Below the pieces are notes generated by a model. That model was not told where the DNA came from and did no database searches. It saw only the letters and a program-made list of their open reading frames with translations. A stretch of DNA of 64,000 nt. It comes from Herpetosiphon giganteus. Lineage in GTDB: Bacteria > Chloroflexota > Chloroflexia > Chloroflexales > Herpetosiphonaceae. The DNA is taken from the NCBI RefSeq assembly GCF_016907925.1, contig NZ_JAFBCZ010000005.1, forward strand, positions 186,001 through 250,000. The letters run 5' to 3'. The translations under genes and the position numbers were made by a program. Below, piece after piece: positions 44,304 through 63,498 of the stretch (positions are counted from its first letter, which is position 1; every line of letters begins with the position of its first letter).

Positions 44304-44388
44304 GGTTAACACTCATTCCAGCAACTAAAAACGGCTTGACCAATTAAGGATACGGCGCAGTATACCATCCCTTAGTACTGTAGGCTAA

Positions 44389-45078: not shown

Positions 45079-45281
45079 TCGGGCCACCTCGATACTAGTT
45101 CAGACAACTCACTCAGGAATTCGCGCTAGACGTGATGATGATGCGACCAGCTCTTCGGTAAAATGACCATCCTCATGAATTGTCATGGGCTGCTTAACGC
45201 TACGAGATTGGTTTTGATGATGTGCTCCAATGCTTGGCATGCATGTGCAATCGTAGCCTTGCTGGAATAGCCATGATCATC
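45079..45281. other. Spacer within the effector region
   Basis: The spacer holds the leader of the EspG-like gene. No gene, hairpin with T-run or known RNA is recognised. Confidence 0.4.
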
Positions 45282-45689: not shown

Positions 45690-45756
45690 CGATGTTCCTC
45701 TACCGAACGCTTGCTGGCCCACAACCGCTTGCTTGGTTTGCAGGCCAGCAAGCCGT

Positions 45757-46242
45757 TTATGCGCCGTAGTAGCGCTGCCGCTGCATAAATTGAATATAAT
45801 CAGCGAGCCATGTGGCTGGTGCGCCAGGCGCGAACATCGCCAACAGCTGCTCAAATTGGCCTGCGAGCAATTGGGCCAGCCATTGATGATAATCGAGGCT
45901 GCCATCCCAAAATTGTTCAATTACCCGCTGGGTCATGATTTTTTTGTTGGCTCGATACTCCAACAAATAGACCAGATTGAACCAGCCTTGCGAGCCATCA
46001 ACGTCGAGAATTTGATCGGTCAAAAATGGCGCATCAAATGTGCCTAAAGCGCAATAATCAGCGCCATCGGTGCGTTGAATCAACAGTTGGCAGCTTGGCG
46101 AATGATACAAGGCCAAGCATTCCAAGCCGTTGTTTTGGGCATCACATTGGACGCGGCGAAATTGACCAAACTCCAAATAGCTGCTCAATTGTTGCTCAAC
46201 ATAGCTGATATAGCCTTGGCACTGGCCACAATCGTTGCTCAC
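45757..46242 (-). CDS. Cys-rich putative immunity protein, paralogue A
   Basis: A 161-residue protein beginning at GTG with GAGG 6 bases upstream. It has CGQCQGYISY, then VQCDAQNNGLECLALYHSPSC, a TDGADYCALG strand and DGSQGWFNLVYLLE, the blocks shared with paralogue B, plus a C-terminal extension absent from B. It starts 10 bases after the WXG100-effector gene stop codon, the position expected of a cognate immunity gene in a polymorphic toxin locus. I do not recognise a named family. Confidence 0.68.
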   Translation of the reverse strand: MSNDCGQCQGYISYVEQQLSSYLEFGQFRRVQCDAQNNGLECLALYHSPSCQLLIQRTDGADYCALGTFDAPFLTDQILDVDGSQGWFNLVYLLEYRANKKIMTQRVIEQFWDGSLDYHQWLAQLLAGQFEQLLAMFAPGAPATWLADYIQFMQRQRYYGA

Positions 46243-46252
46243 AGAAAACCTC

Positions 46253-47521
46253 TTAATCGTTCAAGGATTGGCTGGTTTGCAAAACTTCGCCGCCTGGGCC
46301 TATGCTGCCGCCAGCCACCCGTCCGCCAGTGCTTGCGCGCCAGTCGCCAGTCTTGATCCAGCTATCGCCAATTTGGCGGTAGCCATATTGGTAGGCTTGG
46401 CTTTGCATAAAGCGCACTTCCATCGCGCTATACGATTGAGGGCGCTTGGTCAAAATATCGTCAATCGAGCTGCCCTTAATATCGATTCGGCTAATGCCGC
46501 TTTCAAGCTGCGATTGCAAGAATTCGCGGTTGACTGGCCAGATGCGATTATTGCCGCCTTCAGCAATTGGCTTGAGCGCATCCCAAACTTCGGCGGTGGT
46601 GCTGAAATAGCGTCCGCCATGCGCATTCGCTTCGCCGATATAGCCAAGGAAGCCTGACGCTGGGTCAGCTTTGAATGCCCCTAATACTACTCGATCAGTC
46701 AAGGCTGTGCCTGTGCCAACATGGCTTGATTGATTGGCAATATAGCGAGCCATGGCGGTTTCTGCGCTGCCGCCTTTGGCCAGTGCGCCAATATCGCCAG
46801 CTGCTTGGAGCGGAGTGCTGACACGGGCAATATCAGCGGCTGCATCGGTAACGGTCGCTGCTTTGCTGAGCTTAGCTGCTTTACCAACCTTATCAGCGCC
46901 TTTGGTGCCGATTAAGATCGAGCCGATAAACATCGTGCCACGGCCAATTGCTTCCCATGGGCGGCCATTCTCCCAAGCTTCGACATAGGGCGCTTTGAAT
47001 GCTTCCCAGAACTCACTTGGATGGGTTACTGCGTGCCAAATACCTTTAACCGTTTCGACTGGATTGGTGACCATATTCCAAACGCCGACCACCATATCCT
47101 TGAGTTCTTTGCCTGCGCCAACGAAGAAATCTTTGACCCCATTGCCAACGCTGCTGAAGAACCCGCCAACGCTATCGAGCCAACTACCGCCGCCCTTGCC
47201 ACCTTCAGCATTGCCGAGCAACGAGCCTTTGAATAAACCAGCAGCTTCTTCTTCGGCTTGACTAAAGATTTTTTGGATTTCGAGGGTAACTTGTTGGGCT
47301 GTTTGGAACGCGTTGATCAAGCGATTGAAGGTTGGGAAGATTTCGTCGTTGAGTTCTTTGGCAAAGGCAACGCTGGCATCGCCTTTCCAGCTGTCGTTCA
47401 ATTGTTGGCCGGTATTGCGAATTGTCGTTTGCAATTGCTCAACGTTTTGCTTGAGGCGACCGAAACGCTGAGCCACCTGTGCGGTTTGCTCATACTGTAT
47501 CTGAACAACTTCCTTGCTCAT
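46253..47521 (-). CDS. WXG100-effector fusion (polymorphic toxin candidate)
   Basis: A 422-residue protein. Residues 1-100 form a WXG100 helical hairpin with the motif Trp45-Lys-Gly47 (SWKGDAS) and end in the hinge FSQAEEEAAGLFKGSLLG. A hydrophobic/glycine pre-toxin region follows (about 112-200, with GVKDFFVGAGKELKDMV and VETVKGIWHAVTHP). A variable C-terminal domain occupies about 280-422, with RVVLGAF, GYIGEANAHGGRYF, WPVNREFLQSQ and a YGYRQIGDSWIKTGDW segment. I do not identify the C-terminal activity. AGGAG lies before the ATG. It is probably exported by the adjacent FtsK-type machine to act on competing cells. Confidence 0.8.
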   Translation of the reverse strand: MSKEVVQIQYEQTAQVAQRFGRLKQNVEQLQTTIRNTGQQLNDSWKGDASVAFAKELNDEIFPTFNRLINAFQTAQQVTLEIQKIFSQAEEEAAGLFKGSLLGNAEGGKGGGSWLDSVGGFFSSVGNGVKDFFVGAGKELKDMVVGVWNMVTNPVETVKGIWHAVTHPSEFWEAFKAPYVEAWENGRPWEAIGRGTMFIGSILIGTKGADKVGKAAKLSKAATVTDAAADIARVSTPLQAAGDIGALAKGGSAETAMARYIANQSSHVGTGTALTDRVVLGAFKADPASGFLGYIGEANAHGGRYFSTTAEVWDALKPIAEGGNNRIWPVNREFLQSQLESGISRIDIKGSSIDDILTKRPQSYSAMEVRFMQSQAYQYGYRQIGDSWIKTGDWRASTGGRVAGGSIGPGGEVLQTSQSLND

Positions 47522-47790: not shown

Positions 47791-48588
47791 TTATAACGCT
47801 GCGGTGGCCAATTGTTCAAACCAACGCTGAATATGCTCGCGCAACCATGCTTGATCAATTGACTGCACTTCAAACACTTCAGGGTTAGTTTCGTCGAGCT
47901 GAATTGCCCAAGCGCTACTTGGCCCTTGCAGAATTGCTGGATTAATCGCATCGACGATTTCGGTATCTTCGCAACGCACAATTGCCAACGAAGCACTGAA
48001 CACTGGCGCTTGAATTGCCTCGATCAGGCTTTGGGCAGCTTGTTGCTCAAGCCCAGCCGCAGTTAAGCGGTTCAAGGCTTGGGCATCAGCGCGATCTTCT
48101 GCCAAGCCTTTGATCGCCAAGAATTCGTCTTGGCTGAGGCGCATGCTGGCTTCGAAGGCTTTGCTTGGTTGCACTTCCAACAAAAACGCCAAACGATCAA
48201 ACAGCACCAGCATATCAGGCAAAAACGCCAAGCGATGTTGATTCTCGGTTGGCAGAGTTTGCTCAACAATGCCTAATTGGTTGACATAGTGCAAAAAGAG
48301 CTGGCCACCAGTATCGGGCGTTTCGCGGGTCGTGATAAAGGCAACATCGGGAAACGCCACAATTTGTGAGAATTCTAAGATTTCGCGTTCGATCATGACG
48401 GTTTCATCGTCGCTGATCGTCGCTAATTCTTTGGCAACCAAACCTTGAACCCCTTGATTCAAGGCGGCCAGATGGCTTGCTTGATCGTGGGGAATCAAGC
48501 TTTCATTATCTAAGCCAATAATTTTATTGGTGCGGGCAGCTTCGAGTAAGACCAAAAACTCGTTGCGCTCCAGAATAAGTCCATCCAT
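47791..48588 (-). CDS. EspG-like or immunity candidate
   Basis: A 265-residue soluble protein. Its first half follows the same spacing as the protein at 44389-45078: LERNEFLVLLEA, a LNQGVQGLVAKEL segment, then TVMIEREILEFSQIVAFPDVAFITTRET and a HYVNQLGIVEQ strand. This is also the general layout of EspG chaperones. It begins 19 bases after the glycine-rich WXG100-effector gene and is likely cotranscribed with it. It may therefore be a dedicated chaperone or an immunity protein. No catalytic residues are recognised. Confidence 0.5.
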   Translation of the reverse strand: MDGLILERNEFLVLLEAARTNKIIGLDNESLIPHDQASHLAALNQGVQGLVAKELATISDDETVMIEREILEFSQIVAFPDVAFITTRETPDTGGQLFLHYVNQLGIVEQTLPTENQHRLAFLPDMLVLFDRLAFLLEVQPSKAFEASMRLSQDEFLAIKGLAEDRADAQALNRLTAAGLEQQAAQSLIEAIQAPVFSASLAIVRCEDTEIVDAINPAILQGPSSAWAIQLDETNPEVFEVQSIDQAWLREHIQRWFEQLATAAL

Positions 48589-48607: not shown

Positions 48608-49573
48608 TTACTTCGCTCCGCCAAACGAGATGCCAAATGAAACAAATGGCAACTTGACTTTGGTGGTTTTGCCAATGCTAAAGCCAAGCTCAGCCTTGAG
48701 GCCAACTTCGGCACTCACCCCAACATTAACCCCAGCGACGTTTACGCCTTTGCTTCCGGTAACCGAAACCAAGGTGCCACCAACGGTTGCGCCAAGTGAG
48801 CCATCTTTGATGCCAGCGAAACCTTCAACTGAAAGCGCTTTGCCTTCGAGGGTTTCGGTATAGCCTAAGTTTTTGTTGCCATAGACATTAGTTAATTCGC
48901 CTTTAGCAACGGTTGCTTCGCCGTATGGCCCAATGGTGAATTTTTTCTCGCCATTCATGCCTAAGCCAATCCCAACTTCGCCATAGCCAACTTGGTATTT
49001 GCCTTTGAGGGTATAGGGAATTGGGCCGTCGACTTTAAGTAAATCGCCTTTGCCTTCGAGCAACGCGCCACTTACCCCAAGCTTCAATTGTGGCTTGGTT
49101 TCGCCGGTTTTGGTTTTGTAATCGTAGGTATGGATTTTAACTTTGCCCTTGACGGTTGGGCCGCTGCCTTGTTTGTCGCCATTGCCGGCTTGGCCACTGC
49201 CATCACCTGCTTGGCCGCTGCCGCTGCCATTGCCGCTACCATTGCCGTTGCCGTTGCCACCGCCCATCAATGAGCCTTTGAACAACCCAGCAGCTTCTTC
49301 TTCTGCTTGTTGGAAGATTTTTTTGATTTCAACGGTTGTGCTTTGGGCTTGGTTAAACAACGTGGTCAAGCGCGTGAAGGCAGGTTGAACTTCGCCCCGA
49401 AATTCAGCGCTAAATGCCTTTTGCGCATCACCTTGCCATTCACCAGCTTCTAAGCGGGCTGCAATACTTTCAATCGATTTGAAAATAGCAGTTGTTGTAT
49501 CAGCAGCCTTGCCAAAACGGCTGGCAACCTGATCCAACACATCGTACTTCGCCTGAACGGTTTCTTGAGGCAT
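48608..49573 (-). CDS. WXG100-effector fusion with glycine-rich linker and beta-rich C-terminus
   Basis: A 321-residue protein whose ATG at 49573 has GGAG 8 bases upstream. Residues 1-100 are a WXG100 module (Trp46-Gln-Gly48, EWQGDA) that ends in the hinge FQQAEEEAAGLFKGSLMG, almost the same as in the other fusion. A GNGNGSG/GQAG linker (about 104-138) joins it to a C-terminal domain rich in alternating hydrophobic and glycine residues (VGYGEVGIGLG, GTLVSV, GVNVGVSAEVGLKAELGFSIG), suggesting a beta sheet or barrel-like domain. There is no cysteine in the C-terminal domain. Its activity is unknown. Confidence 0.78.
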   Translation of the reverse strand: MPQETVQAKYDVLDQVASRFGKAADTTTAIFKSIESIAARLEAGEWQGDAQKAFSAEFRGEVQPAFTRLTTLFNQAQSTTVEIKKIFQQAEEEAAGLFKGSLMGGGNGNGNGSGNGSGSGQAGDGSGQAGNGDKQGSGPTVKGKVKIHTYDYKTKTGETKPQLKLGVSGALLEGKGDLLKVDGPIPYTLKGKYQVGYGEVGIGLGMNGEKKFTIGPYGEATVAKGELTNVYGNKNLGYTETLEGKALSVEGFAGIKDGSLGATVGGTLVSVTGSKGVNVAGVNVGVSAEVGLKAELGFSIGKTTKVKLPFVSFGISFGGAK

Positions 49574-49878
49574 GACACAAACTCCATCGGGTATAAAAAG
49601 AACAGAAGTTTTATCATTGCTAGCAATACTAGCCAATGATTATGCTTGATGCTTAATCAGGTTAAACCTTGGTTAAGCACCTATTCTTCTCAGTTAAGAC
49701 TACAATAAAAGGCGCAGCCTTACCAAGGAAATACAATTGACTCTGCAAGCATACTCGATGGATTGCTGGTTTACAAGAGGGGCTTTTGATGGATTTTTTA
49801 ACTCATTTGCGGCCTTGAAATGCTCAAACGAGATGCAACTAGCAATAGTCGGAATATCTCGTTTGAGCTAGTTGTGGT
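49574..49878. other. Intergenic region with 13-bp inverted repeat
   Basis: There is no gene here. A 13-bp perfect inverted repeat (49822-49834 with 49856-49868, spacer 21) begins 10 bases beyond the DUF3467-like stop codon. It lacks a T-run, so it may protect the mRNA 3' end rather than terminate. The rest may hold the promoter for the 49573 unit, but I see no clear one. Confidence 0.5.
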
Positions 49879-50233: not shown

Positions 50234-50863
50234 TTAATCCGAAATAATGACTTTAAAGGTAATTTGGCTCCGATCCAGCGTGATCAAGTCGCCATGCTGT
50301 AAGACTTGGCGGCGATCAACCTGAATGGGCCGACCCGTCGAATCGGTAATCGTCGTTGGGTTTGGCGAGAGGCTTTCAATATAGAAATGACCGCCAGTTT
50401 CGGTAATTTCAAATTGCCGCCGTGAAACCCGCAACCCATTAGGGTGGCTGCCCAAATCAACTGCCAATAGATCGTTGCTTGCTTGATTGTCGAAGCGGCC
50501 AACGATTGCTGGTTGCCAGTGGAGGCGATAACTATTGCCCGTTGGATGCTCACGTAAGTAAATCCGACGTGCCATTGGCTGGCCATCTTCTGGCATATTT
50601 GGCATTGCTTCACTAAATATCAAGCGTTCTTTATTCGAAACTTGTTTATCGAGTGTGCGATTATTGCTTAAGACGCTGCCATCTTGCTTCATCAAGCAAT
50701 AGGCATCGGGATTTTGACCAAGAAAATCGAAGTCACGCCGAAATTCCTTCAAAATCGATTCAACAAGCTCTCCGGTAGGAATGTTGGTGAGTGTTTGAGC
50801 AACTTGTTGCTTCTTTTCATAGACATCGATAAAAAGTTCAAAGCGGGCTTGTTTGGCACCCAT
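50234..50863 (-). CDS. Ubiquitin-like (YukD/EsaB type) plus FHA protein
   Basis: A 209-residue cytosolic protein. Residues about 8-86 have the beta-grasp pattern of YukD/EsaB (FELFIDVYEKKQQVAQTLTNIPTGELVESIL...LMKQDGSVLSNNRTLDKQVSNKERLIF). Residues about 115-207 form an FHA phosphothreonine-binding domain with GR at 122-123, SRRQFEI at 147-153 (Gln where His is usual) and LSPNPTTI. Firmicute systems carry FHA on the ATPase and YukD as a separate gene; here the two are fused. It lies 68 bases after the ATPase gene and is presumably a regulator or docking factor. Confidence 0.78.
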   Translation of the reverse strand: MGAKQARFELFIDVYEKKQQVAQTLTNIPTGELVESILKEFRRDFDFLGQNPDAYCLMKQDGSVLSNNRTLDKQVSNKERLIFSEAMPNMPEDGQPMARRIYLREHPTGNSYRLHWQPAIVGRFDNQASNDLLAVDLGSHPNGLRVSRRQFEITETGGHFYIESLSPNPTTITDSTGRPIQVDRRQVLQHGDLITLDRSQITFKVIISD

Positions 50864-50931: not shown

Positions 50932-53900
50932 TTAGCTTTCTAAGGTTCCTTCGAAGGTCAAAATCAACGATTCATCATCGCTGCTGGTCATGTCGGCCAT
51001 CATTGTCGCGGTTTCGAGATCGAGGCCATCGTGCATATGCTGATCGACCAACATTTGGTGCAGCATCGATCGCAGGCGCTCGGAGCTATTCCAGCTTGCA
51101 AAATCCATTGAAATATAGTTTTGCATAATCGCTTCAGCAATATTGCTATCGCCGTTTGCCTCTTTGATGCGTGGCATCAAGCGTTGGATACCTTGGCGAA
51201 TCAGCGCCGACATTCGAGCAACTGTCGGGTCTTGTTCCATGCTGACTGGTTTATCGCCAATCGTAATCGCCCCACTTGACCAGGCTGCCCGTTCTGGGTA
51301 GCGTTCGCTGATGGTTTCAACCCAGCCGTCAAGGGCTGTGATGATCCGTTCGGCTTCATCGCTGGCATCTTCGGTGACAATATGGCTGCCATCGGTATAC
51401 GGGCTGGCCACTTGGATCAAGGTTGTTTGACCTGCTTTGACCATAAAGCCCCGACCCATTGGCAATTCTTTGCCCCGAACTTCGCTTGGGGTGCGCATAA
51501 CCCGTAATGATTCCACCGCTTGGGCTGTCCGTAGACCAATCCCAAAGTTGGCGCTCATAACGCGGCGGCGCAGATCATTGACCCCACCATCGAGCGTGCC
51601 TGCAATAATGACAAACACACCTTCGCCACCGTAGCGCCGAGTCAGCACTGCCATATCGTTCATCACTGAACGCTTGCTTTCTGCTTCGTCGCTGAAATCT
51701 TCAAAGTTATCGATGAAGATATAGACTGGGCGGTTAATCGCTTGCTGGGCGAATGCCTGACACTCGATTTGTAGATTTTCCAACAATGGACCCATTTGAT
51801 CGATTTCGCTGACGGTTTGCAAGACGTGCGGCAAATCAGCAAGGCTGCGTTTGCCACCATACTTGAAGAAGCGTCCGCGGGTATCAATCAAGACCATCGC
51901 CACCTGTTCAGGCGTGTAGCGATCGGCCAGCGAAAGCACCCAGTTGTAGAGCAAGGTGGTTTTACCAGAGATTGGTGGCCCAGCAATCGCTGCGTGTGGC
52001 CCAATCTTTTTGAGATCGTACATGGCTGGCATCAGGTTGTTGCTTTGGCCAACGACGCTCCAAATGACTTTGCCTTCAGCAACTTTATTGGTTTCATCGA
52101 GCATTTCGCGCAATGGCACAATTTGCGGCAGAATTTGAATTGGATCAGGTGTGGTGCGCATGCCACCAAGTTGTTCAACCTTGGCCTGCATCATCATCCC
52201 CATCAAATCAAGTTCTTCAGCTTCGTTGCGATGGTCGCGGCCATCAGGCCCAACTAAGCCCACTGGCAAGGTTGCTTGGAAGAGCAATGGCCGTTTTCCA
52301 ACCCGAATATAGCCGCGGCCCGGCACATCGCCAAATTCAATTGCGCCCCGCCCAACAATATCCATATAGCGATCTTGTTGGCCTTGCTTGAAGGTAATCC
52401 GTTCGCCAAATAAGCTGTTAAAGCGGCTTGACATATTGGTTGGGAAGTTGGCCGTAACGATAAAGGCAATCCCAACGCTCAGTGAGCGCCGAACCAATGG
52501 AATCAAGACCGATTCTTCAACCGCGTCGTAATTCTCGTGGATGATGGCAATGTTATCGATTGCAACCACAATCGCTGGCAAGGCTTGATCTGGAAACTGC
52601 TTATTGTATTCATAGATGGTGTTGACCCCTGCATCGCTGAAGATTTGTTGGCGTTCGCGGGTCAAACGTTCCATCTTGCTGAATAAACGCAGCATTTGTT
52701 CTTCAAAGGTCTCGTCGTCGGCGTAAATTAATGCTCCGACGTGCGGCAAGTTGCGCAAGCTACGGAAGTTGCGCCCACCCAAATCGACCACATAGGCGTG
52801 GAGTTCATCGGGGCTGTGGCTCGCTGCCAAACCGGCGATGATCGAGCGTAACAACGAAGTTTTGCCCCAACCAGAATCACCATAAATTGCCAAGTGATTG
52901 GTGCTGAAATCAAAGACAAATGGCAATTGGGTTGCTTCATTTGGATCATCAACCAACAAGGCTGCGGTGCGCATGGCCTCGGTTTCCCAATCGACCCCTG
53001 GCCAGAGATGTTCAGTGTCACCGTTGATCCAATCGGTTACGGCTGGCTGGAAGACAATAATGCTATTGTCTTTGGCATTGATAATCGGCGATTGCAAACT
53101 TACGCGCTCGGGTAAGAAATTTGGCCATGGTTTTGGCGTTGGTTGGAAATTGACCAACTCACGTGAAATTTGCACCACGGTATCAAACAATTTCGGTGTA
53201 TCTTCGCTGGTTGAAACTGGTTCTGGCTCACGTTCTGGCCAGAGCACAGCCACTTCGCGATCGTCGATTTGGCTTTCGCCAGTGTATGAAACCTGAATCA
53301 GTTCAAGATTTTCGTTGCCAATTTGCAAGTAGCCACGGCCTGGCATGCCGTTGGGCAAGAAGGCTGCGTCTGGTTTGCGCAAGAGTTCACGGCTGGTATC
53401 TGGCTGTTCAACCCGTAGACAGAGCCGCAACTTGATATTGGCGCGCATTTGGTCGGTAACACCCTTTGGTTGTTGCGAAGCGAGCAAGAGGTTGACCCCT
53501 TGGGCACGACCAACCCGGGTGATACTTTCCAACGATGGGAGATATTCAGGGTTCGAATCGAACATTTCGGCGTATTCGTCGATGATGATGAACAAGTGTG
53601 GGTATGCGCCAAACTCTGGTTTCTTGTGGAAGCCACGTTCGCGATATTCCACAATATCCTTCGTGCCAGTCATGGCGTTGAGTGCTTGACGGCGACGAAT
53701 TTCAGCATCAATCGAGGTGAACATACGATCAACTGCCGACTTGTTCAAGTTGGTCACGATGTCCACACAATGCGGCATGTTTTCGAATGGCTTGAAGGCA
53801 CCGCCACCTTTGAAGTCGACCAAGACAAAGTTGAGAATATCAGGCGAGTAATTCAGCGCTAGACCCACAATCAAGGTCATCAGCAATTCCGATTTACCAG

Positions 53901-56900
53901 CACCAGTACCCCCTGCAACCATCCCGTGAACACCGTCACGCTTGGCTTCGAGTTGCAGCGTGCGTGGCCGATTGCCTGAGACAATCCCCAAACATGCAGC
54001 CAACCAGCCAGCTTGTTTGCCAGTGCCTGCGTTGTATTCCCAGGTTTTGGCGGTTGCTTCTTTGAGTTCTTCGACAAATGGCCGGTCGCCACGGCCAATG
54101 TTGTGCATTTCTTGCAGCACTTGGCGATACGACGAACTCTTGGGCAAGGCGGCAATCCCCAACGGTGGTTGGTATTTGCCAGGATTATTGGCGATATGCG
54201 CATTCATATGCTTGCCGATAACCCGAATTTGGCCAGCTTCACCGCGAATTTGCAGTTTTTCGGTCACTTGTGGTTGGCCGTCAGCGCCCAAGACATCGGC
54301 TTTGCCAATCGTGCCTGGTGGTAAGGCAATGTGATAGCTCAGCGCATCGCGGCCAACTTTGACCGCACCACGCCCAGGAATTTCTTCAACTTCTAAGAGC
54401 CGTGCGCCAACAATGGCCGAATAGTCGCCTGAATCAGAAATCTTGAAGGTCAAGCGTTCGGTAAAGAGGCTATACAGCTTACTTGACAGAATATTCAAGC
54501 GGCTGGCAGTGATCAGAATATGCAAGCCATAGGCTTTCGCTTGGCGTGCCAAGGCTACAAAGACCTCAAGCAAGTTATTGGCATCATTATTCTTATCATC
54601 GCCAAAGGTTTCGATATATTCGCCGAAGTTATCGATTGCCACCAAAATTGCTGGCTTTGGATTGGCAGCGTTTTGGCTGTTGTACTCAGAAAGGGTTGAA
54701 ACCCCGGCATCGCTGAACAGTTTCTTGCGTTCATCAACAACGTTATTCAATTCACGCCAAAGCTGCTGAATGCGCTCTTCATAGCCTTGTTCGTCTGGCA
54801 GAATCACCGTCCCGACGTGCGGGATGGAGCGCAAGACTTCAAGGTTACGGCCACCAAGATCGAGCACATGGGCATTGAATTCGTTGGGCGAGTGGGTTGC
54901 TGCCAAACTCAACACCAACGAGCGAATCATGGTGGTTTTACCCCAACCAGAAGCGCCGAAAACCACTACGTGACCTTTGTTGAAGTCGAGCACCAATGGC
55001 ATTTGGCGGGCATTACCTGGATCGTCGAGCACCCCAACGACCGCGCGCATTGCCACGTGATTCCAATCGACTCCAAACCACTGACCTTTATTCTCAAACC
55101 AATCGCCAACAAAGGCATTGATTGCGATTCGTTGCGAACGGCCAAGGGTCATCAATGGTAGATAAGTTTTATCAACATACCGTGGGTTGAGCGGTTGTTC
55201 GTAGGTAATTGCATCGGGCAATGGCGCTGGCCATGGCGTTTGAGGCCGTGGTCGTGGATGGAGTAAATTTTGCGCCATCGTCACGATTAATTCATAGAAC
55301 TTGGCTTTAGTGCCGTCGGCAGCCACTGCATAATCGTATGATTCACCAGTGTACGAAACTTGAATCAGGTCAAGATTTTCGTTGCCAACTTGGAGATAAC
55401 CCCGACCAGGCATGCCGCTTGGCAAGAAGGCTGCATCCGAGCGGCGCAACATTTCGCGGCTGGTTTCAATATCTTCAACCCGCAAACAGATCCGATACTT
55501 GATGTTGGCGCGCATTTGGTCGGTAACCCCGATTGGCCGTTGTGAGGCCAGCAAGAGGTTGACCCCAATTGAACGTCCAACCCGAGTTATACTTTCCAAC
55601 TCATCGCGGAACTCAGGCGTATCGCTGATCATTTCCGCATATTCGTCGATGATGATAAATAGATGCGGGAATGGCCCCCATTGTGGGTCAAGGTGGAAGC
55701 CCTTGGCACGATATTCCACAATATCTTTGGTGCCAGTACGCGCATTCAGCGCTTGGCGACGGCCCATTTCTGCATTGATTGCCGTAAACATCCGGCGCAC
55801 GCGCGATTTATTCAAGTTGGTCACCAAATCAACGGTGTGTGGCATATCCTTGAAGGGATCAAACGCACCACCACCCTTGTAGTCGACCAAAATGAAGTTA
55901 AGGATACTGGGGTCGTAGCGCACGGCCAAACCGATGATCAAGCTCATCAGCAATTCCGATTTACCAGCACCAGTACCGCCTGCAATCATCCCGTGAACAC
56001 CATCTTTTTTGGCTTCGAGTTGCAGCGTGCGTGGCCGATTGCCCGACATCACCCCAATCGTCACTTTGAGCCAATCGGCGTTTTCTGGTTTGATGCTATT
56101 TTCCCATGCTTCGCTCATCAGGCTATTCAATTGAGGCCGTAGATCGGCATCGAAGCGAATTTCGCGCTGGAGCATGGTGGCATACATTTCGGGCAACATC
56201 GATTTGAAGAGAATCGCCTTGGGCATTGCGTCAACCCGCCGTGGCTTGAGATAGTTTTTGCCACTGGTGCGGGCATAATCAGTCATAAATTGGGCCAACT
56301 GATCGATTTCTTTCATTTCGATCGTTGGGTCAAGCGAGCCATCGCTGCTGATGCCAGCTGCGACCGCCACTTGGAAGCTGAGCGGCTGTGGGCCAACTTT
56401 GGTATAGCCACGGCCAGGAATATCATTAATATCGTCAACCCGACCGCCAACGATCGACCGATATTCGGTGTTATCGCTGAGTTTCAAGGTGTAACGCTCG
56501 GTAAATAAGCTAAAGACTTGGTTCGATAGCTCGGCCAGGCTGCCAATGGTAATGATGAAGTGAATTGCATACGGCTTGGCTTGGCGCGCAATCGAAATCA
56601 GCTTATCGAGCACGCTTTCGACGTTGCTATCTGGGCCTTCGCCAAAGGTTTCGGTAAATTCGGCAAAGTTATCGATTGCAACCAAAATTGCTGGCTGGGT
56701 ATTGGTTGGATTAACCGCATTGTATTGGTAAATATCGGCAATCCCTGCATCGTTGAGCAGCAGTTTGCGTGCATCGACAATATCGTTGATTTCGCGCAGC
56801 AATTGTTCGACCCGTTCTTCGTAGCCTTCACCGTCAGGAATAATCACCGCACCTGAGTGAGGCAATTTATCCAGCACGCTAAAGTTCCGCCCACCCAAAT

Positions 56901-59772
56901 CGAGAATATACATATGCATCTGATTTGGCGAGTGGGTTGCGGCTAAGCTCATCAGCATCGAGCGCAGGAAGGTGGTTTTACCCCAACCAGAGCCACCAAA
57001 GACGACTGCATGGCCGCGTGGGAAGTCCACGGTCAAGGGTAATTGCTTCGCTGCATAGGGATTATCGATCAAGCCAAGCACTGGCCGCATTGCATAATCA
57101 CGCCAGTTCAGATCTTCGACCCAGCCCGAAGTCCCATTGATCCATTTGTTCAAGGCAGGGTTCAAGGTCAGATCGTGCTCGCGGGGCAAGCCAACCATAA
57201 TTTCGTCGATGCCCAACAGATATTCTTCAAAAGTAACTGCATTGACATTCGGATCTTCTGAGATCAAGTGTTGGGTCAAGGCCAGTTCGCGTGGCAAGAA
57301 GTTTGGCCATGGTGCCCGTTGAATTGGCACGTTATTATCACGTGACAAAGCATCGAGCGTGCTGACGATGACCTTGTACAGTTCTGGTGGGCTTTGATCT
57401 TGGGTATCAATCCCTGGGTCAACGCCTTCAGCGCGGCGGCGATCTGGCCAAATAACTTTTTCTTGCGAAACTGAATTGGGGTCAACATAGGGATCGCCAG
57501 TGTAGGCCACTTGAATCAATTCAATTTCTTCGTTACCAACTTGCAGATAGCCCCGACCTGGAATCCCAGTTGGCAAGAAGGCTGCATCCGAGCGGCGCAA
57601 CATTTCGCGGCTTTCGCCTTGGGTCTCCACCCGCAAGCTAATCCGGAACTTGATGTTCGAACGCATTTGGTCGGTGATCCCGCTAGGCCGTTGTGCGGCG
57701 AGAATCAGCGAAACCCCGAGCGAACGCCCAATCCGCGTGATACTTTCCAACTCGCCCCGATACTCAGCCCGATCGGCGATCATTTCGGCGAATTCGTCGA
57801 TGATGATAAACAGATAGGGATAGGGATAGTGGGTATTGTGGAAGTTCTTCTTGCGATATTCAACGATATTTTTGGTATCAGTTTCGTTGTTTAAGACTTG
57901 GCGGCGTTGCATTTCCGACTTAATTGCCGTAAACATGCGGGTTACGCCATCGCCAGCCAAGTTGGTGATGATGTCAACACAGTGGGGCAGGCGTTCGAAT
58001 TCTTTGAATGCGCCACCGCCCTTGTAGTCGACCAACACAAAGTTAATCACCGAAGGATCGTAGGTAACCGCCATCACCGCAATCAGCGAGATTAGCAACT
58101 CCGATTTACCAGAACCGGTACTGCCTGCGACCATCCCGTGAACACCATCACGTTTGGATGAGAAAACCAAAGTCCGGGTTTTATTCCCCGACATGCGACC
58201 AACCTTGGCGCGCAGCCAGTTGGCATATTTAGGTTGCGTGCTGCGTTGCCAATTCTTAATCGCATCGACCTTGAGTTCATCAAGTGAGCCATAGCCCATC
58301 AGGTCGAAGAAGGCAACGCCATCGGCAAGGTTGGCCCCAGCGCTTTGGCGCAAATTGAGGGTTGATAGTTCTTCGGCCAATTTGCGCGATTCTTCGCGAT
58401 TAACAATATTATCAGCAGCCCCGATATAGCGGAAGGTGTTGACCCCCTGCTCGGCGTAGCGGAAGAATAATTGTTGATGTTGGGCTTGCTTACTGTTGGT
58501 TGCTGGCGTGGTTCGTTCAATTTCGATCACCGACTTACAGCCGCCAGGCACTTTGCTGCGTTCTGGCACGAGGAAGATCACCGCAGCGCCAAGCTGTGGG
58601 CCTTCTTCGATCAAGATTGAGAGTGCTGCATCCGATTCAATATCGCGCAACCGCTCGCCAGCTTTTTCATACATATCGAGCAGGTCAACTACCAGCAACA
58701 TAAATGGTAAGCCTGGGTTGCCACGGCCCGAATTATTATTATTTTCTTCGTTATCTTCCATGCGCATTTTGCGTTGCGATAGAATTTTACGAATGCCTTC
58801 CATGTATTGATCTAATTCATCGCCTTCTTCATCGGCATCATCAGCAACTTCTTTAATTTCGCTGACGAAACAAAGTTGCTCATATTCGCCTGGCTGACAG
58901 TGGGGCAAGGTTTCGACCCAATCCCATTCGTTATATTTTGAGGCCAAAACATACAAACGTGAATCGGACGGTGAGTGGAAAACCGCATAATGCGCCAAAA
59001 TCGAGCGAATCGATTCATAGACAGCATCCCGATCGCCTGCAATCCCCAAGGCATGGGTGGTTGGCGTAATCGGCGTTGCCTTTTCTTTCGAGCCGCCTTC
59101 GTCTTCTGGCTTGTAGCGCAAGGTGATAATAATCGGAATATCAGAGACATAGCGCGAATCGGCATCAAGCTTCATGGCTTCACGAGCGAGTGGGCTACTG
59201 AAATTGCCACCGCTCTTAACCTCGTAAACCACGGTTGATGGCAATGTGCCCATGCCAAGCCGCACCGAGCCGAAGTCATCATCAGAAACCCGTCGTTCCC
59301 AAATGCGCGCATTTGAGCGCAGGGTGCGTTCAGGCTTTTCTAAATCTTGTTTGGCATCGGTAATAACCTTGATCGTATTTGGCGTATCAGGATAGTTATA
59401 GCGATAAAAACGGCGCTGCAAATCGTGATAGCCGTGCATATCTTTATTTAATTCAACGATCTGTTCATGATATTGGCGTTCACGTTCTAAACGTTGGTTT
59501 TTCTCACGAATAAACGAATAGATTGAGAAGCCTGTGGAGGCCAACACCGATAATGCCATCGGGATGAGAATCAAAGCGCCGCCGCCGCCGCGCCCTCCAA
59601 ACATTGTTACGAAGACATAACCCACAATCATCGTCATCGGCAGAGCCAACTGAATCAGTTTCGAAATCGCATCCTCAGGATTTTCTGGCGGGGATGGGAT
59701 TTCAAACTTATTGAAAGGTAGCTCTGGTTGAATCCGTGGAGGACGATCTATCATCTGGATAGAGTTTTTCAT
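50932..59772 (-). CDS. Giant FtsK/SpoIIIE-type ATPase of the type VII-like system (EccC/EssC-like, seven ATPase modules)
   Basis: A 2,946-residue membrane ATPase. Two membrane segments lie at about 40-58 and 66-88, then a coiled region. Seven P-loop modules follow, with Walker A lysines at 556, 932, 1271, 1612, 1960, 2304 and 2604. Modules 1, 3 and 5 have G-GTGAGKSELL-type loops (GSTGSGKS in module 1) and a full Walker B (FIIIDEFAEM or FIIIDEYAEM). Modules 2, 4 and 6 have SGWGKT loops and a Walker B ending in Asp-Asn (VAIDNF or VAIDNI). Module 7 has GPPISGKTT and FIDNFEDF. Canonical EccC/EssC has three modules and 1,300-1,500 residues. There is no N-terminal FHA. GGAG lies 8 bases before the ATG. 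It is the likely motor and substrate-recognition platform for WXG100 export. Confidence 0.92.
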   Translation of the reverse strand: MKNSIQMIDRPPRIQPELPFNKFEIPSPPENPEDAISKLIQLALPMTMIVGYVFVTMFGGRGGGGALILIPMALSVLASTGFSIYSFIREKNQRLERERQYHEQIVELNKDMHGYHDLQRRFYRYNYPDTPNTIKVITDAKQDLEKPERTLRSNARIWERRVSDDDFGSVRLGMGTLPSTVVYEVKSGGNFSSPLAREAMKLDADSRYVSDIPIIITLRYKPEDEGGSKEKATPITPTTHALGIAGDRDAVYESIRSILAHYAVFHSPSDSRLYVLASKYNEWDWVETLPHCQPGEYEQLCFVSEIKEVADDADEEGDELDQYMEGIRKILSQRKMRMEDNEENNNNSGRGNPGLPFMLLVVDLLDMYEKAGERLRDIESDAALSILIEEGPQLGAAVIFLVPERSKVPGGCKSVIEIERTTPATNSKQAQHQQLFFRYAEQGVNTFRYIGAADNIVNREESRKLAEELSTLNLRQSAGANLADGVAFFDLMGYGSLDELKVDAIKNWQRSTQPKYANWLRAKVGRMSGNKTRTLVFSSKRDGVHGMVAGSTGSGKSELLISLIAVMAVTYDPSVINFVLVDYKGGGAFKEFERLPHCVDIITNLAGDGVTRMFTAIKSEMQRRQVLNNETDTKNIVEYRKKNFHNTHYPYPYLFIIIDEFAEMIADRAEYRGELESITRIGRSLGVSLILAAQRPSGITDQMRSNIKFRISLRVETQGESREMLRRSDAAFLPTGIPGRGYLQVGNEEIELIQVAYTGDPYVDPNSVSQEKVIWPDRRRAEGVDPGIDTQDQSPPELYKVIVSTLDALSRDNNVPIQRAPWPNFLPRELALTQHLISEDPNVNAVTFEEYLLGIDEIMVGLPREHDLTLNPALNKWINGTSGWVEDLNWRDYAMRPVLGLIDNPYAAKQLPLTVDFPRGHAVVFGGSGWGKTTFLRSMLMSLAATHSPNQMHMYILDLGGRNFSVLDKLPHSGAVIIPDGEGYEERVEQLLREINDIVDARKLLLNDAGIADIYQYNAVNPTNTQPAILVAIDNFAEFTETFGEGPDSNVESVLDKLISIARQAKPYAIHFIITIGSLAELSNQVFSLFTERYTLKLSDNTEYRSIVGGRVDDINDIPGRGYTKVGPQPLSFQVAVAAGISSDGSLDPTIEMKEIDQLAQFMTDYARTSGKNYLKPRRVDAMPKAILFKSMLPEMYATMLQREIRFDADLRPQLNSLMSEAWENSIKPENADWLKVTIGVMSGNRPRTLQLEAKKDGVHGMIAGGTGAGKSELLMSLIIGLAVRYDPSILNFILVDYKGGGAFDPFKDMPHTVDLVTNLNKSRVRRMFTAINAEMGRRQALNARTGTKDIVEYRAKGFHLDPQWGPFPHLFIIIDEYAEMISDTPEFRDELESITRVGRSIGVNLLLASQRPIGVTDQMRANIKYRICLRVEDIETSREMLRRSDAAFLPSGMPGRGYLQVGNENLDLIQVSYTGESYDYAVAADGTKAKFYELIVTMAQNLLHPRPRPQTPWPAPLPDAITYEQPLNPRYVDKTYLPLMTLGRSQRIAINAFVGDWFENKGQWFGVDWNHVAMRAVVGVLDDPGNARQMPLVLDFNKGHVVVFGASGWGKTTMIRSLVLSLAATHSPNEFNAHVLDLGGRNLEVLRSIPHVGTVILPDEQGYEERIQQLWRELNNVVDERKKLFSDAGVSTLSEYNSQNAANPKPAILVAIDNFGEYIETFGDDKNNDANNLLEVFVALARQAKAYGLHILITASRLNILSSKLYSLFTERLTFKISDSGDYSAIVGARLLEVEEIPGRGAVKVGRDALSYHIALPPGTIGKADVLGADGQPQVTEKLQIRGEAGQIRVIGKHMNAHIANNPGKYQPPLGIAALPKSSSYRQVLQEMHNIGRGDRPFVEELKEATAKTWEYNAGTGKQAGWLAACLGIVSGNRPRTLQLEAKRDGVHGMVAGGTGAGKSELLMTLIVGLALNYSPDILNFVLVDFKGGGAFKPFENMPHCVDIVTNLNKSAVDRMFTSIDAEIRRRQALNAMTGTKDIVEYRERGFHKKPEFGAYPHLFIIIDEYAEMFDSNPEYLPSLESITRVGRAQGVNLLLASQQPKGVTDQMRANIKLRLCLRVEQPDTSRELLRKPDAAFLPNGMPGRGYLQIGNENLELIQVSYTGESQIDDREVAVLWPEREPEPVSTSEDTPKLFDTVVQISRELVNFQPTPKPWPNFLPERVSLQSPIINAKDNSIIVFQPAVTDWINGDTEHLWPGVDWETEAMRTAALLVDDPNEATQLPFVFDFSTNHLAIYGDSGWGKTSLLRSIIAGLAASHSPDELHAYVVDLGGRNFRSLRNLPHVGALIYADDETFEEQMLRLFSKMERLTRERQQIFSDAGVNTIYEYNKQFPDQALPAIVVAIDNIAIIHENYDAVEESVLIPLVRRSLSVGIAFIVTANFPTNMSSRFNSLFGERITFKQGQQDRYMDIVGRGAIEFGDVPGRGYIRVGKRPLLFQATLPVGLVGPDGRDHRNEAEELDLMGMMMQAKVEQLGGMRTTPDPIQILPQIVPLREMLDETNKVAEGKVIWSVVGQSNNLMPAMYDLKKIGPHAAIAGPPISGKTTLLYNWVLSLADRYTPEQVAMVLIDTRGRFFKYGGKRSLADLPHVLQTVSEIDQMGPLLENLQIECQAFAQQAINRPVYIFIDNFEDFSDEAESKRSVMNDMAVLTRRYGGEGVFVIIAGTLDGGVNDLRRRVMSANFGIGLRTAQAVESLRVMRTPSEVRGKELPMGRGFMVKAGQTTLIQVASPYTDGSHIVTEDASDEAERIITALDGWVETISERYPERAAWSSGAITIGDKPVSMEQDPTVARMSALIRQGIQRLMPRIKEANGDSNIAEAIMQNYISMDFASWNSSERLRSMLHQMLVDQHMHDGLDLETATMMADMTSSDDESLILTFEGTLES

Positions 59773-60042: not shown

Positions 60043-61146
60043 ATGAAACAGGTATGTCTGTTATGTGAACGAACATCGTTTGATAATAATTTGTATTGTC
60101 AAGAAGTTTATTGTCAAGCTGAAAAATCGCCAACAATTCTTGGATATGGAAAATGGCTGGGCGATATTGAAATCGTGCGGCCCGTTGTTGTACTACGCTC
60201 TTCAGTTTTATACGAAGCCAGCCATCAAAAAGAGCGCGTATTTCTTAAAGTAGCCCACGTTGGCAGCGAAAATACTGAACGCTTAAAACGTGAAGCCGAA
60301 TTTCTAAAAACTATTCGGGTTTCGAACGAACGCAATACGTTCTTGCCAAATTGGCGGCCACCCTATGCCAATGCCACCGTAAGTGCCCAGACTGAGGCCT
60401 ACGGGCGGGCGATGCTCGGCGAACACCTTTTTTACTATTACTTGTCAGATTTCTTTGCTGGCGAATCGTTGCGCGACGCGCTGACCAAAAATCCGCAAAT
60501 GTGGGTCAACCATATTGGTTGGTTGGTCATGCGTTTGTCATCATCAATTGCGCTCTTGCAAAGCAAAGGTGTGTTGCATTTCGGGATCAACCCCGAATCG
60601 CTGTTGGTGCATTTTGAAGATAATCCTTCAGTGCCAACCATTCACTTGCTCGATTTGGGTATTGCCAGCACGCCGCAAAATATCAACAACGATTGGTATT
60701 CGTTTATGGTTCCGCCAGCCTATACTGCACCAGAAATTATGCAGCCGCACCTGCAAAAACCAAGCTATGCAACCGATGTCTATGGCCTCGGCTTGATTTT
60801 GTATGAAATGCTGGTTGGCGTTCCGGCCTATCCCTTCAAGCTCAAAAGCGACGAAGAGGTCTATCAGGCAGTCTTGAAAAACCATCATGTTAATATGAAC
60901 CGAACTGCTGACGTGCGGGCAATTGCTGAGCTGGCAGTGCGCATGGTCGATGTTCAAGTTGCGAATCGGCCTCAAAACGCAGCTCAAGTCGTCCAGGAAT
61001 TACTTAAGCTGTTTGGTGAAGTTCCAACTGCCAAAAAGAGCCGCTGGCCCAGCCTCAACACGATCCTGATTATTGTGATTAGTTTATTGACCGTCGCCTT
61101 TTTGATTACCTTCTTTGTAACCTTGAACCAGTTGAATATTATTTAG
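60043..61146 (+). CDS. Zinc-ribbon pseudokinase with C-terminal membrane anchor (EssB/YukC-like candidate)
   Basis: A 367-residue protein in order: an N-terminal Cys set (Cys5, Cys8, Cys19, Cys24) resembling a zinc ribbon, a protein kinase fold (about 40-325), and one membrane segment (about 340-360) with a 7-residue tail. The kinase keeps the ATP-lysine candidate Lys69, Glu84, the DFG-position Asp204 (DLG) and APE (229-231). The catalytic loop, however, reads H-F-G-I-N-P-E-S-L-L (179-188), so the catalytic Asp, the following Lys and the metal-binding Asn are all replaced. EssB/YukC of Firmicute type VII systems is also a membrane-bound pseudokinase, which supports the parallel. It is divergent from the giant ATPase. 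Confidence 0.82.
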   Translation: MKQVCLLCERTSFDNNLYCQEVYCQAEKSPTILGYGKWLGDIEIVRPVVVLRSSVLYEASHQKERVFLKVAHVGSENTERLKREAEFLKTIRVSNERNTFLPNWRPPYANATVSAQTEAYGRAMLGEHLFYYYLSDFFAGESLRDALTKNPQMWVNHIGWLVMRLSSSIALLQSKGVLHFGINPESLLVHFEDNPSVPTIHLLDLGIASTPQNINNDWYSFMVPPAYTAPEIMQPHLQKPSYATDVYGLGLILYEMLVGVPAYPFKLKSDEEVYQAVLKNHHVNMNRTADVRAIAELAVRMVDVQVANRPQNAAQVVQELLKLFGEVPTAKKSRWPSLNTILIIVISLLTVAFLITFFVTLNQLNII

Positions 61147-61290: not shown

Positions 61291-61593
61291 CTAGCCGAAG
61301 CGGCCTGATGCCGAGAAGTCTTGGTTTTGGAAGTTCTTAATAGCGGTATTGACATCTTGAGTGATTTCAACACATTTTTCAGCCATCTTTTCGATTTGTG
61401 GACGGAACTGATCGATGTAGTTTGCTACAGCTGCGCCACCAACCAAACCGATGAATGCAGTTGCTTTAAGGGTGGTTGAAAGGACTTCCAAGACTTTAGC
61501 AACGGTTTTCAAAACTTGCCCAACCGTATTGATAGTCTTAGCGATTTTGGCGACATCGCCAACCTGCATATAAATTTCTGATGCTTGTGCCAT
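61291..61593 (-). CDS. Small helical protein of the WXG100 operon
   Basis: A 100-residue protein that is almost entirely helical, with a hydrophobic stretch in the middle (about 44-59: AFIGLVGGAAVANYI) flanked by amphipathic helices. It has no W-x-G. AAGGAG lies 8 bases before the ATG. As the last gene of a four-gene leftward unit it is probably a secreted partner or a small membrane-associated component. No family is recognised. Confidence 0.75.
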   Translation of the reverse strand: MAQASEIYMQVGDVAKIAKTINTVGQVLKTVAKVLEVLSTTLKATAFIGLVGGAAVANYIDQFRPQIEKMAEKCVEITQDVNTAIKNFQNQDFSASGRFG

Positions 61594-61638: not shown

Positions 61639-61968
61639 CTAGTAGAACTTAGCAATGCTGCGCAATTTTGAGTTAACCAAGTTGCGAGCGGTGCTATCAG
61701 CGCGGTCGATCAAATCGCGAGCTTTGCCCAAGTTGCTGTGGTAGCTGGTGATGCCAGTCCCGATGCGGGTAACTTGGGGGGTCATCAAGTTGGTCAATTC
61801 TTCGCGGAACTGATCAGCACCTACACCACGCCATACTTGTGGTGATGATGCAATGATTTGCTTGATTGGAGCCAAAGCTTGTTCTTGAATGACATTGAAT
61901 TGTTGCATCAATTGTTGCAAAACGCTTTCCAAAACTTTGCGAGCCAAGCGCATCAAGAAACTTTTCAT
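61639..61968 (-). CDS. WXG100-like protein with basic N-terminal helix
   Basis: A 109-residue helical protein with the turn motif Trp46-Arg-Gly48 (VWRGVGADQF) between two long helices, which fits a WXG100 hairpin. Its first helix is basic and hydrophobic (MKSFLMRLARKVLESVL), which is unusual for the family. GAGGAG lies 7 bases before the ATG at 61968. It probably forms heterodimers with a neighbour and is exported by the adjacent ATPase. Confidence 0.75.
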   Translation of the reverse strand: MKSFLMRLARKVLESVLQQLMQQFNVIQEQALAPIKQIIASSPQVWRGVGADQFREELTNLMTPQVTRIGTGITSYHSNLGKARDLIDRADSTARNLVNSKLRSIAKFY

Positions 61969-62009
61969 GGATAAACTCCTCAATTAGGTATACAAAGAGC
62001 CAATTACGA

Positions 62010-62300
62010 TTAGAAGCTGCTTTTCGCGCTGCCGTCTGCTGCATCCATTGCGGCCATAGCGTTCTTGATGTCGCCTTGGATTTCGGTCATCTTGGCAGCT
62101 AATTTAGCCAATGATGGAGCCATCATGCCGGTCAAAACATCAACGAATTCGCTACCAGCGTCGCCTTTGAGGGCTTCGTCGATGGTGCTCGCAATTGACA
62201 AAACTTCTTGGGTTACATCTTGAACTTGTTCGTGCGCTTTGCCAAAGGTTGCTTGAGCTTGTTCCATAGCCGCACGATTATACTTCATTTTCTCTGCCAT
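62010..62300 (-). CDS. WXG100-like protein (degenerate motif)
   Basis: A 96-residue, Met/Ala-rich helical hairpin protein. The turn reads Leu44-Lys-Gly46 (ALKGDAGSEF), that is, the Trp of W-x-G is Leu, while the following GDAGSEFVDVL matches the family. AAGGAGG lies 8 bases before the ATG. It sits between two other members of the family in one operon, so it may form a mixed dimer. Confidence 0.78.
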   Translation of the reverse strand: MAEKMKYNRAAMEQAQATFGKAHEQVQDVTQEVLSIASTIDEALKGDAGSEFVDVLTGMMAPSLAKLAAKMTEIQGDIKNAMAAMDAADGSAKSSF

Positions 62301-62331: not shown

Positions 62332-62640
62332 TTAGATTTTCCAAGCTTTGAAGATTGCCGCAGCTTCATCTTCATGTTGTTGGAAGGTTTGCTTGATTTC
62401 GTTGCTGGTTGATTGGAAGGTGTTGAAAGCTTGAATCAAGCGATTGAAGGCTGGGGTCATTTCGCCTTGCCATTCTGCTTGATACTTAGCTGCTGCATCC
62501 CCGACCCAATCTTGTTGCATTTTTTGGGCAAGTTGGTTGAGGGTTTGGAACAATTGTTGTACGTTTTGCTCGAGCTTGCCGAAGCGTTGCGCAACTTGTG
62601 CCATCACTTCTTTGTCGATTTGTACTGTTTCTGCTGCCAT
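62332..62640 (-). CDS. WXG100 family protein (EsxA-like)
   Basis: A 102-residue protein with a canonical Trp45-Val-Gly47 turn (DWVGDAA) between two helices. It is strikingly similar to the N-terminal modules of the two effector fusions (MAQVAQRFGKLEQNVQQL; F.RLIQAF....EIKQTFQQHEDEAAAIF). AAGGAGG lies 9 bases before the ATG at 62640. It is the first gene of the four-gene unit and probably the general secreted substrate or partner of the machine. Confidence 0.9.
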   Translation of the reverse strand: MAAETVQIDKEVMAQVAQRFGKLEQNVQQLFQTLNQLAQKMQQDWVGDAAAKYQAEWQGEMTPAFNRLIQAFNTFQSTSNEIKQTFQQHEDEAAAIFKAWKI

Positions 62641-63498
62641 TGAAGAAATCCTCCTTGTGTGTTCGGAGCCAAATTGGCTGCACTGTGGCACACAACCGTA
62701 GTGCTTGCTGGTTATATCAATCTGACGAAAGTAGTTAGCCGAAGCTTTCCTTTTAGGTTTGAGTGATATGACGAGCGACCGAGATTGCTAATAGTTGAAT
62801 TGTCCTTGGCTGCCAAACGTTATTTGTGTTCCGCAAGAGCTTGCTTCTAACACCACCAGCCCAACACTACCGCTTTTGTATAAAAAGACCAAATAGGGGT
62901 TTATCGATTGTTATTGCCACCAAAGCGATAGGTTGTTACAAAAACTGGCCTAATGAGCGAAATTCGCATCCGTCGAGAAACGAGTTTGTTCAATTAGTGG
63001 TTTTTGCGCTTACTGAATGTGCCTGCTTTAACCAAATACATTCTCTCACCCCATGTATTTAGCTATTGCAACGTTGTAATGCTATTTGCTTCACATAAAC
63101 ATCGATTGCCAATTGCGGTTAATTCGTACTCAGAGTGTACAAAACCAAATTGCACTTGTCAAGAGCTTTTTTTGGGGTTTTTCCCACCAATATCGCAATT
63201 GGTTAGGAGTCTTGTACTATCCCTCGTCTATTAAGCGTGCTCGGTTGTTAATCAAATCGCCTCAGCGACCCTTGAGAATGGTCTTGGCTCAGTTTTATTC
63301 TGTCATTTCAATGTATTCGGCTCTCTGAGCTACCCTGCTAGCTAGCTAATGGCCTACCCTGAGTACTAGGACTTGCGGAATTAAGCGGCAATTTGCTTGA
63401 TTATCGGCTACTTTGCAACTCAATTTTGAACTTGATTAACCAGATTTAGCGCGTTGGAATCAGGCAATCAGCTGGTTTGGTTAAGTAACGAGGCTTGA
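62641..63498. other. Long intergenic region
   Basis: About 860 bases with no convincing gene on either strand; the short open frames lack ribosome sites and protein-like composition. It must contain the promoter of the WXG100 operon, but I could not pick a clear -35/-10 pair. It is AT-rich, with a poly-T tract near 63,165-63,185. Confidence 0.5.

What the first reader, a model, noticed from the sequence alone, without database searches (positions are those of the whole stretch)
50932..59772. Alternating intact and degenerate Walker B sites in the giant ATPase
Modules 1, 3 and 5 carry Asp-Glu in Walker B (FIIIDE) with a KSELL P-loop. Modules 2, 4, 6 and 7 carry Asp-Asn (VAIDN, FIDN), with SGWGKT loops in 2, 4 and 6. 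So three putatively active and four putatively inactive sites alternate along the chain. This suggests a division of labour, for example power modules and substrate-gated regulatory modules that might each receive a different WXG100 substrate.
Basis: partly seen in the sequence, partly recalled or inferred. Interest (0 to 1): 0.8.

Follow-up and report, generated by a model that had tools for sequence, protein, structure and literature searches.

The report
Type VII motor with tripled ATPase pair

Summary
The 2946-aa protein (window 50932-59772, minus strand) has seven FtsK/EccC-type P-loop modules. Modules 1, 3 and 5 have Walker B Asp-Glu; modules 2, 4, 6 and 7 have Asp-Asn at the same alignment column.

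The alternation did not arise on its own. Modules 1/3/5 group with EccC/EssC ATPase D1, 2/4/6 with D2 and 7 with D3, and Asp-Asn is what solved EccC/EssC D2 domains carry. So the protein is a type VII secretion motor, D0-(D1-D2)x3-D3.

All 18 complete giants recovered from Chloroflexota genomes, 6 of them Herpetosiphon, have this exact order. Glu is present in 54 of 54 odd modules and 0 of 72 others.

New here: four tandem small WXG100 genes, four orthologous types, lie upstream of the giant in 17 of 17 loci with enough flank; 28 ordinary EccC loci have 0-3.

'Power modules' is well supported by homology. 'One WXG100 per degenerate module' is untested: the count fits (4:4), but module-specific conservation is weak. 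Best label: new variant of EccC/EssC.

The parts
50932..59772 (-). Giant EccC/EssC-type ATPase, 2946 aa, D0-(D1-D2)x3-D3
   Evidence: ORF; NCBIfam TIGR03928, TIGR03924, TIGR03925; PDB EccC/YukB/EssC hits
59518..59658 (-). Two likely membrane helices near the N-terminus (aa ~39-85)
   Evidence: Hydropathy peaks, (no dedicated TM predictor was run)
58567..59055 (-). Degenerate D0 domain (aa ~240-402), no Walker A
   Evidence: Weak D2-HMM match in 4 of 18 giants incl. this one
57463..58206 (-). Module 1, D1 type: KSE P-loop, Walker B D659-E660
56353..57084 (-). Module 2, D2 type: SGWGKT, Walker B D1034-N1035
55318..56061 (-). Module 3, D1 type: KSE P-loop, Walker B D1376-E1377
54313..55044 (-). 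Module 4, D2 type: SGWGKT, Walker B D1714-N1715
53245..53994 (-). Module 5, D1 type: KSE P-loop, Walker B D2065-E2066
52258..52968 (-). Module 6, D2 type: SGWGKT, Walker B D-N (N about aa 2407)
51373..52062 (-). Module 7, D3 type: PISGKT, Walker B D2688-N2689
50234..50863 (-). FHA protein with a possible YukD/ubiquitin-like N-terminus, 209 aa
   Evidence: FHA E 4.4e-6; YukD only E 0.02, below cut-off
60043..61146 (+). Protein kinase, 367 aa; a similar-sized gene lies between the WXG100 genes and the giant in most relatives inspected
   Evidence: neighbours
61291..61593 (-). Small WXG100-like gene, type D (EspC/WXG100-like)
61639..61983 (-). Small WXG100-like gene, type C
62010..62300 (-). Small WXG100 gene, type B
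62332..62691 (-). Small WXG100 gene, type A
48608..49636 (-). WXG100 domain fused to a long C-terminal region, 342 aa (candidate substrate)
46253..47521 (-). WXG100 domain fused to a long C-terminal region, 422 aa (candidate effector)

Best explanation
This is the motor ATPase of a type VII secretion system in which the D1-D2 unit of EccC/EssC has been tandemly multiplied to three copies, keeping one D0 at the start and one D3 at the end. Modules 1, 3 and 5 (D1) are the ATP-hydrolysing motors. Modules 2, 4, 6 (D2) and 7 (D3) probably bind ATP without hydrolysing it and act as assembly, clamp and substrate-reading modules, as their counterparts do in ordinary EccC/EssC. The chain probably assembles through its membrane helices as EccC does, so three motor tiers act on one substrate path. 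Shown here: the domain types, the order, the conservation of catalytic residues and the conserved gene cassette. Inferred: hydrolysis by each odd module, ATP binding by the others, the oligomer, and export of the neighbouring WXG100 proteins.
For: NCBIfam EssC/EccCa/EccCb models match far above cut-off (repeats inflate the summed score). PDB matches are TcEccC, YukB, EccC5 and GtEssC. Tree of 133 module rows: odd with canonical D1 (SH-aLRT 100), even with D2 (88), M7 with D3 (96). Lys of P-loop and Glu of Walker B in 54 of 54 odd modules; P-loop Lys or Arg in 72 of 72 even plus M7, Glu in 0 of 72. Asp-Asn occurs in D2 of TcEccC, EccC5 and GtEssC. Published tests: D1 motifs needed, D2 motifs not, in Streptococcus EssC; ATP bound in GtEssC D2. 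The giant is the only EccC-sized protein among 14 PF01580 matches in this genome, which holds 18 WXG100 matches, 16 of them in ORFs of 337 aa or more.
Against: No experiment on any giant. In S. aureus, D2 Walker substitutions did abolish secretion (PMC9436818), so D2 is not dispensable everywhere. The arginine at the aligned finger position is R in 54 of 54 odd modules but also in 7 of 18 M2 and 5 of 18 M4, so loss of the finger is not complete in even modules. No EssB/YukC homologue found; the EccB search gave no signal in the controls either. AlphaFold models were too poor (mean pLDDT 47 and 42) to show how the modules pack.
Confidence: 0.78

Rival explanations
1. Covalent ring: the three D1-D2 pairs lie side by side rather than in stacked tiers, so that two chains form one six-fold motor ring. 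The giant is then a linked trimer of an ordinary motor rather than a taller one.
For: The multiplied unit is exactly D1-D2 and never changes number in 18 complete giants, as a fixed ring count would require; M3 and M5 have no orthologue-conserved difference (132 same, 0 different).
Against: There is only one D0 and one pair of likely membrane helices per chain, whereas ordinary EccC brings six of each to the pore (PMC11217815 passage). G414 appears to carry a fourth D1-D2 pair at a contig edge, which does not divide into six.
Confidence: 0.2
2. Division of labour by substrate: each degenerate module (2, 4, 6, 7) docks the tail of one of the four neighbouring WXG100 types and gates the motor module next to it.
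For: Four conserved WXG100 types, same order, 17 of 17 giant loci with flank, against 0-3 in 28 canonical loci. D3-type modules do bind WXG100 tails (PMC6954902).
Against: Tail binding is known for D3 only; few orthologue-conserved differences between M2, M4 and M6 (44 same, 5 different); four WXG100 proteins could simply be two heterodimers.
Confidence: 0.12
3. Only one odd module works; the other D1-D2 pairs are a structural extension of the motor.
For: In ordinary EssC one D1 per chain suffices.
Against: Every catalytic residue checked (P-loop Lys, Walker B Asp and Glu, finger Arg) is retained in 18 of 18 of M1, M3 and M5 alike, and odd modules are the most conserved part (72-75% mean identity against 46-58%).
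Confidence: 0.12

Closest known systems
EccC (type VIIa secretion motor; TcEccC 4NH0, EccC5 7NP7)
   Same: N-terminal membrane part, D0, D1 with Asp-Glu, D2 with Asp-Asn, D3 last; odd modules align with D1 and even with D2
   Different: One D1-D2 pair instead of three; TcEccC D3 reads Asp-Asp, module 7 here Asp-Asn; no EccB homologue detected (inconclusive)
EssC/YukB (type VIIb secretion motor; GtEssC 5FV0/4LYA, YukB 9QKS)
   Same: Best NCBIfam score (TIGR03928); D2 of GtEssC has the same Asp-Asn, described as unusual in PMC4925161
   Different: Three D1-D2 pairs; FHA domain on a separate gene; no YukC/EssB homologue found although the control genome rang
T7SSc-T7SSj variants (PMC11217815)
   Same: Loci with kinase, FHA and WXG100 genes around the ATPase
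   Different: [quoted passage not shown] here eight including D0, in Chloroflexota

Membership tests
EccC/EssC type VII motor ATPase | Matches EccC/EssC family models above curated cut-off | tested here: met
   TIGR03928 1527 bits vs 778; TIGR03924 1015 vs 509; TIGR03925 799 vs 347; repeats inflate totals
EccC/EssC type VII motor ATPase | D1 with complete Walker A/B; D2 and D3 with altered Walker B | tested here: met
EccC/EssC type VII motor ATPase | Order D0-D1-D2-D3, one of each | tested here: not met
   D0-(D1-D2)x3-D3; module order in 18 of 18 complete giants; D0 itself recognised in 4 of 18
EccC/EssC type VII motor ATPase | Two N-terminal membrane helices | tested here: inconclusive
   Two hydropathy peaks, 19-residue windows starting at aa 39-42 and 64-67; no TM predictor available
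EccC/EssC type VII motor ATPase | Linked WXG100 genes | tested here: met
Type VIIb secretion system | EssB/YukC membrane partner | tested here: not met
   PF10140: 0 matches in own genome, control B. subtilis rang
Type VIIa secretion system | EccB membrane partner | tested here: inconclusive
   PF05108: 0 matches, but no control genome rang
EccC/EssC type VII motor ATPase | ATP hydrolysis and export of WXG100 proteins | not testable with these tools
   needs protein and cells

The most novel reading that the evidence does not exclude
A seven-stage secretion motor with a built-in substrate code: three hydrolysing tiers alternate with ATP-locked docking tiers, and the four docking modules (2, 4, 6, 7) each read one of the four linked WXG100 types, so that one chain checks or hands on a four-part substrate complex before or during export.
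Probability: 0.12. Interest if true: 0.9.

Novelty: new variant of a known kind. Interest (0 to 1): 0.62.

Why it matters
In ordinary EccC/EssC it is hard to separate the role of D1 from those of D2 and D3 because there is one of each. A natural motor with three D1-D2 pairs and one D3, conserved across several Chloroflexota families, lets one ask directly whether motor pairs act in series, how many are needed and whether D2 reads substrates. The fixed set of four WXG100 proteins gives defined candidates to test. It also extends a secretion system described almost only in Actinomycetota and Bacillota to a phylum where the papers I could search barely mention it.

Tried and rejected
Chance or misaligned Asn: rejected; one column in all alignments.

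Independent decay of every second module: rejected as the origin; the tree puts odd, even and last modules with canonical D1, D2, D3.

Order of duplication: the large tree puts M2 with M4 (97) and M3 with M5 (96), suggesting that a D2-D1 unit was copied second. In the separate trees this was weaker (M2/M4 branch 72/0, M3/M5 branch 83/86), so I leave it open. M3 and M5 of the same protein pair in G430 (100/99), G038 (91/81) and G238 (89), which looks like gene conversion.

Rows dropped: c231, the fifteenth canonical protein chosen, gave no module match, so canonical counts are of 14. The tree used 14 of 18 giants (four near-identical Herpetosiphon left out) and dropped 7 rows with short or odd domains (6 canonical D3, 1 canonical D2). 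One search used 12 of 18 giants and 8 of 14 canonical proteins; one search used 13 of 18 giants (G238, the most divergent, left out of both).

Substrate pocket: compared by eye the region between motif 1 and Walker B; no clear module-specific pocket, not pursued.

Structure: two AlphaFold jobs, mean pLDDT 47 and 42; the first was used only for a fold search that returned TcEccC first. Not used for packing.

Giants outside Chloroflexota: not properly searched. Plasmid search: 609 records matched; the 30 best places span at most about 3.9 kb, ordinary EccC/EssC size; the other 579 records were not inspected.

Literature: searches in the open PMC library found no description of an EccC/EssC with repeated D1-D2 pairs. 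I saw listings and passages, not whole papers. The TcEccC paper (PMC4409929) is not held; E593 and R616 as its catalytic and finger residues are recalled, and the finger column rests on that recall.

Full report
OBSERVATION. The minus-strand ORF at 50932-59772 encodes 2946 aa with seven P-loops at aa 550, 926, 1265, 1606, 1954, 2298 and 2598. A module alignment puts Walker B Asp-Glu in modules 1, 3, 5 and Asp-Asn in 2, 4, 6, 7, in one column. The alternation ends in two degenerate modules (6, 7), and an eighth, degenerate D0 region lies at aa ~240-402.

WHAT IT IS. NCBIfam calls it EssC/EccC well above the cut-offs. Sequence search of solved structures finds TcEccC, YukB, EccC5 and GtEssC. Module 1 aligns best with D1 of those proteins, module 2 with D2; module 7 gives weak matches to several domains including D3 of EccCb1 and EccC3, and its D3 identity rests mainly on the tree and its last position. 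In these alignments D2 of TcEccC, EccC5 and GtEssC reads Asp-Asn, as in modules 2, 4, 6 here. The GtEssC paper describes Asp1105-Asn1106 with ATP bound and calls the change unusual (passages of PMC4925161). So the intact/degenerate pattern belongs to the ordinary EccC/EssC plan.

RELATIVES. A TIGR03924 search of 400 phylum genomes and a protein search of 158 class genomes gave the giants. Complete ones: G000 plus 17 others, 18 in all; 17 lie in this class and one (G038) in another class. Six are Herpetosiphon (6 of 6 same-genus genomes). Four further genomes hold only pieces on short contigs (G401, G406, G414, G431). HMMs built from the window modules gave the same order D1-D2-D1-D2-D1-D2-D3 in all 18. 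Ordinary 1250-1600 aa EccCs occur in many Chloroflexota, sometimes in the same genome as the giant (for example G070, G274, G052, G238, G442). In the window's own genome no other PF01580 match lies in an ORF longer than 844 aa.

RESIDUES. Across 18 giants: P-loop Lys 54 of 54 in odd modules; Walker B Asp 126 of 126; Glu 54 of 54 odd, 0 of 72 in M2, M4, M6, M7, where it is Asn in 65, and Gly, His, Thr or Ser in 7. The arginine at the column that I take for the finger (recalled from TcEccC R616) is 54 of 54 in odd modules, 7 of 18 M2, 5 of 18 M4, 0 of 18 M6 and 0 of 18 M7. Of 14 canonical Chloroflexota proteins, D1 has Glu in 14 of 14; D2 has Asn 8, Lys 5, Asp 1.

TREE. 133 rows: odd modules form one group with support 100 inside a D1 group of 56 rows (100); even modules group together (92) among canonical D2; M7 with canonical D3 (96), one canonical D3 row (c274) falling outside. 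Separate trees keep M4 and M6 as firm clades (100/98, 100/99) but leave the order of duplication open. Within one protein M3 and M5 share 72% identity on average, M1/M3 64%, M2/M4 52%, M4/M6 42% (13 giants). Between orthologues, odd modules average 72-75%, even 55-58%, M7 46%.

NEIGHBOURS. Upstream of the giant lie four small WXG100-like genes in a row: window 62332, 62010, 61639, 61291. The same four, in the same order, occur in 17 of 17 giant loci with enough upstream sequence; the eighteenth (G430) has 754 bases of contig upstream. In a tree of 13 representative loci each of the four types is one group (supports A 83/82, B 73/82, C 59/78, D 100/99). With the same model, 28 ordinary EccC loci show 0 to 3 small WXG100 genes within 5 kb of the EccC gene, none four. 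That model was seeded with the window's proteins, some canonical loci are cut by contig ends, and divergent canonical members may be missed, so the contrast may be somewhat overstated. A kinase-sized gene sits between the WXG100 genes and the giant, and a 210-236 aa gene follows the giant, in most of the 13 loci inspected (their identity as kinase and FHA was tested by family search only in the window). The window's genome has 18 WXG100 matches, 16 in ORFs of 337 aa or more, so one motor may serve many fusion proteins.

HOW IT PROBABLY WORKS. Odd modules: hydrolysing motors (residues shown, activity inferred from D1 of EssC, PMC13355648 passages). Even modules and 7: ATP-binding, non-hydrolysing (residues shown, function inferred). 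S. aureus results differ: D2 Walker substitutions stopped secretion and assembly (PMC9436818 passages). D3 is where WXG100 tails bind in solved complexes (PMC6954902 passages), so module 7 is the first candidate for tail binding. The idea that modules 2, 4, 6 also read tails rests on the 4:4 count. Against it, few columns conserved in every even orthologue set differ between them (5 of 49), and none of 132 differ between M3 and M5.

VARIANT. G414 shows an extra D1-D2 pair before module 1 at a contig edge, in which the D1-like module has Ser-Glu in place of Asp-Glu (Pfam sees five FtsK stretches). Whether this is a nine-module chain is unproved.

NOVELTY. The parts are known; the tripled D1-D2 arrangement and the fixed four-WXG100 cassette were not found in the papers searched. 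Papers seen in passages mention Chloroflexi/Chloroflexota only for a few WXG100 sequences.

Noticed in passing
L096 3-5303 minus and L097 3-4331 plus (G414): Possible nine-module relative: an extra D1-D2 pair before module 1, its D1-like Walker B reading Ser-Glu; the stretch before it at the contig edge has no Pfam match of its own among those listed.
   Followed up: partly
G430, G038, G238 modules 3 and 5 (L095, L076, L075): Modules 3 and 5 of the same protein are closest to each other, which looks like gene conversion within the gene.
   Followed up: partly
window 45282-46242: Two similar small proteins (a 161-aa ORF and a paralogue beside it) follow the 422-aa WXG100 fusion; they look like duplicated immunity genes. 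No Pfam match for the 161-aa one.
   Followed up: no
window 47791-48588 and 44389-45087: Two proteins of 265 and 232 aa without convincing Pfam match near the WXG100 fusions; perhaps EspG-like chaperones (a guess, not tested).
   Followed up: no
window 41952-44312: VWA plus FHA domain protein near the secretion locus.
   Followed up: no
window 50234-50863: A possible ubiquitin-like (YukD) domain and an FHA domain in one small protein directly after the giant; EssC carries FHA on the ATPase itself.
   Followed up: partly
own genome: 16 of 18 WXG100 matches lie in ORFs of 337 aa or more, scattered over many contigs, although only one EccC-type motor was found.
   Followed up: partly
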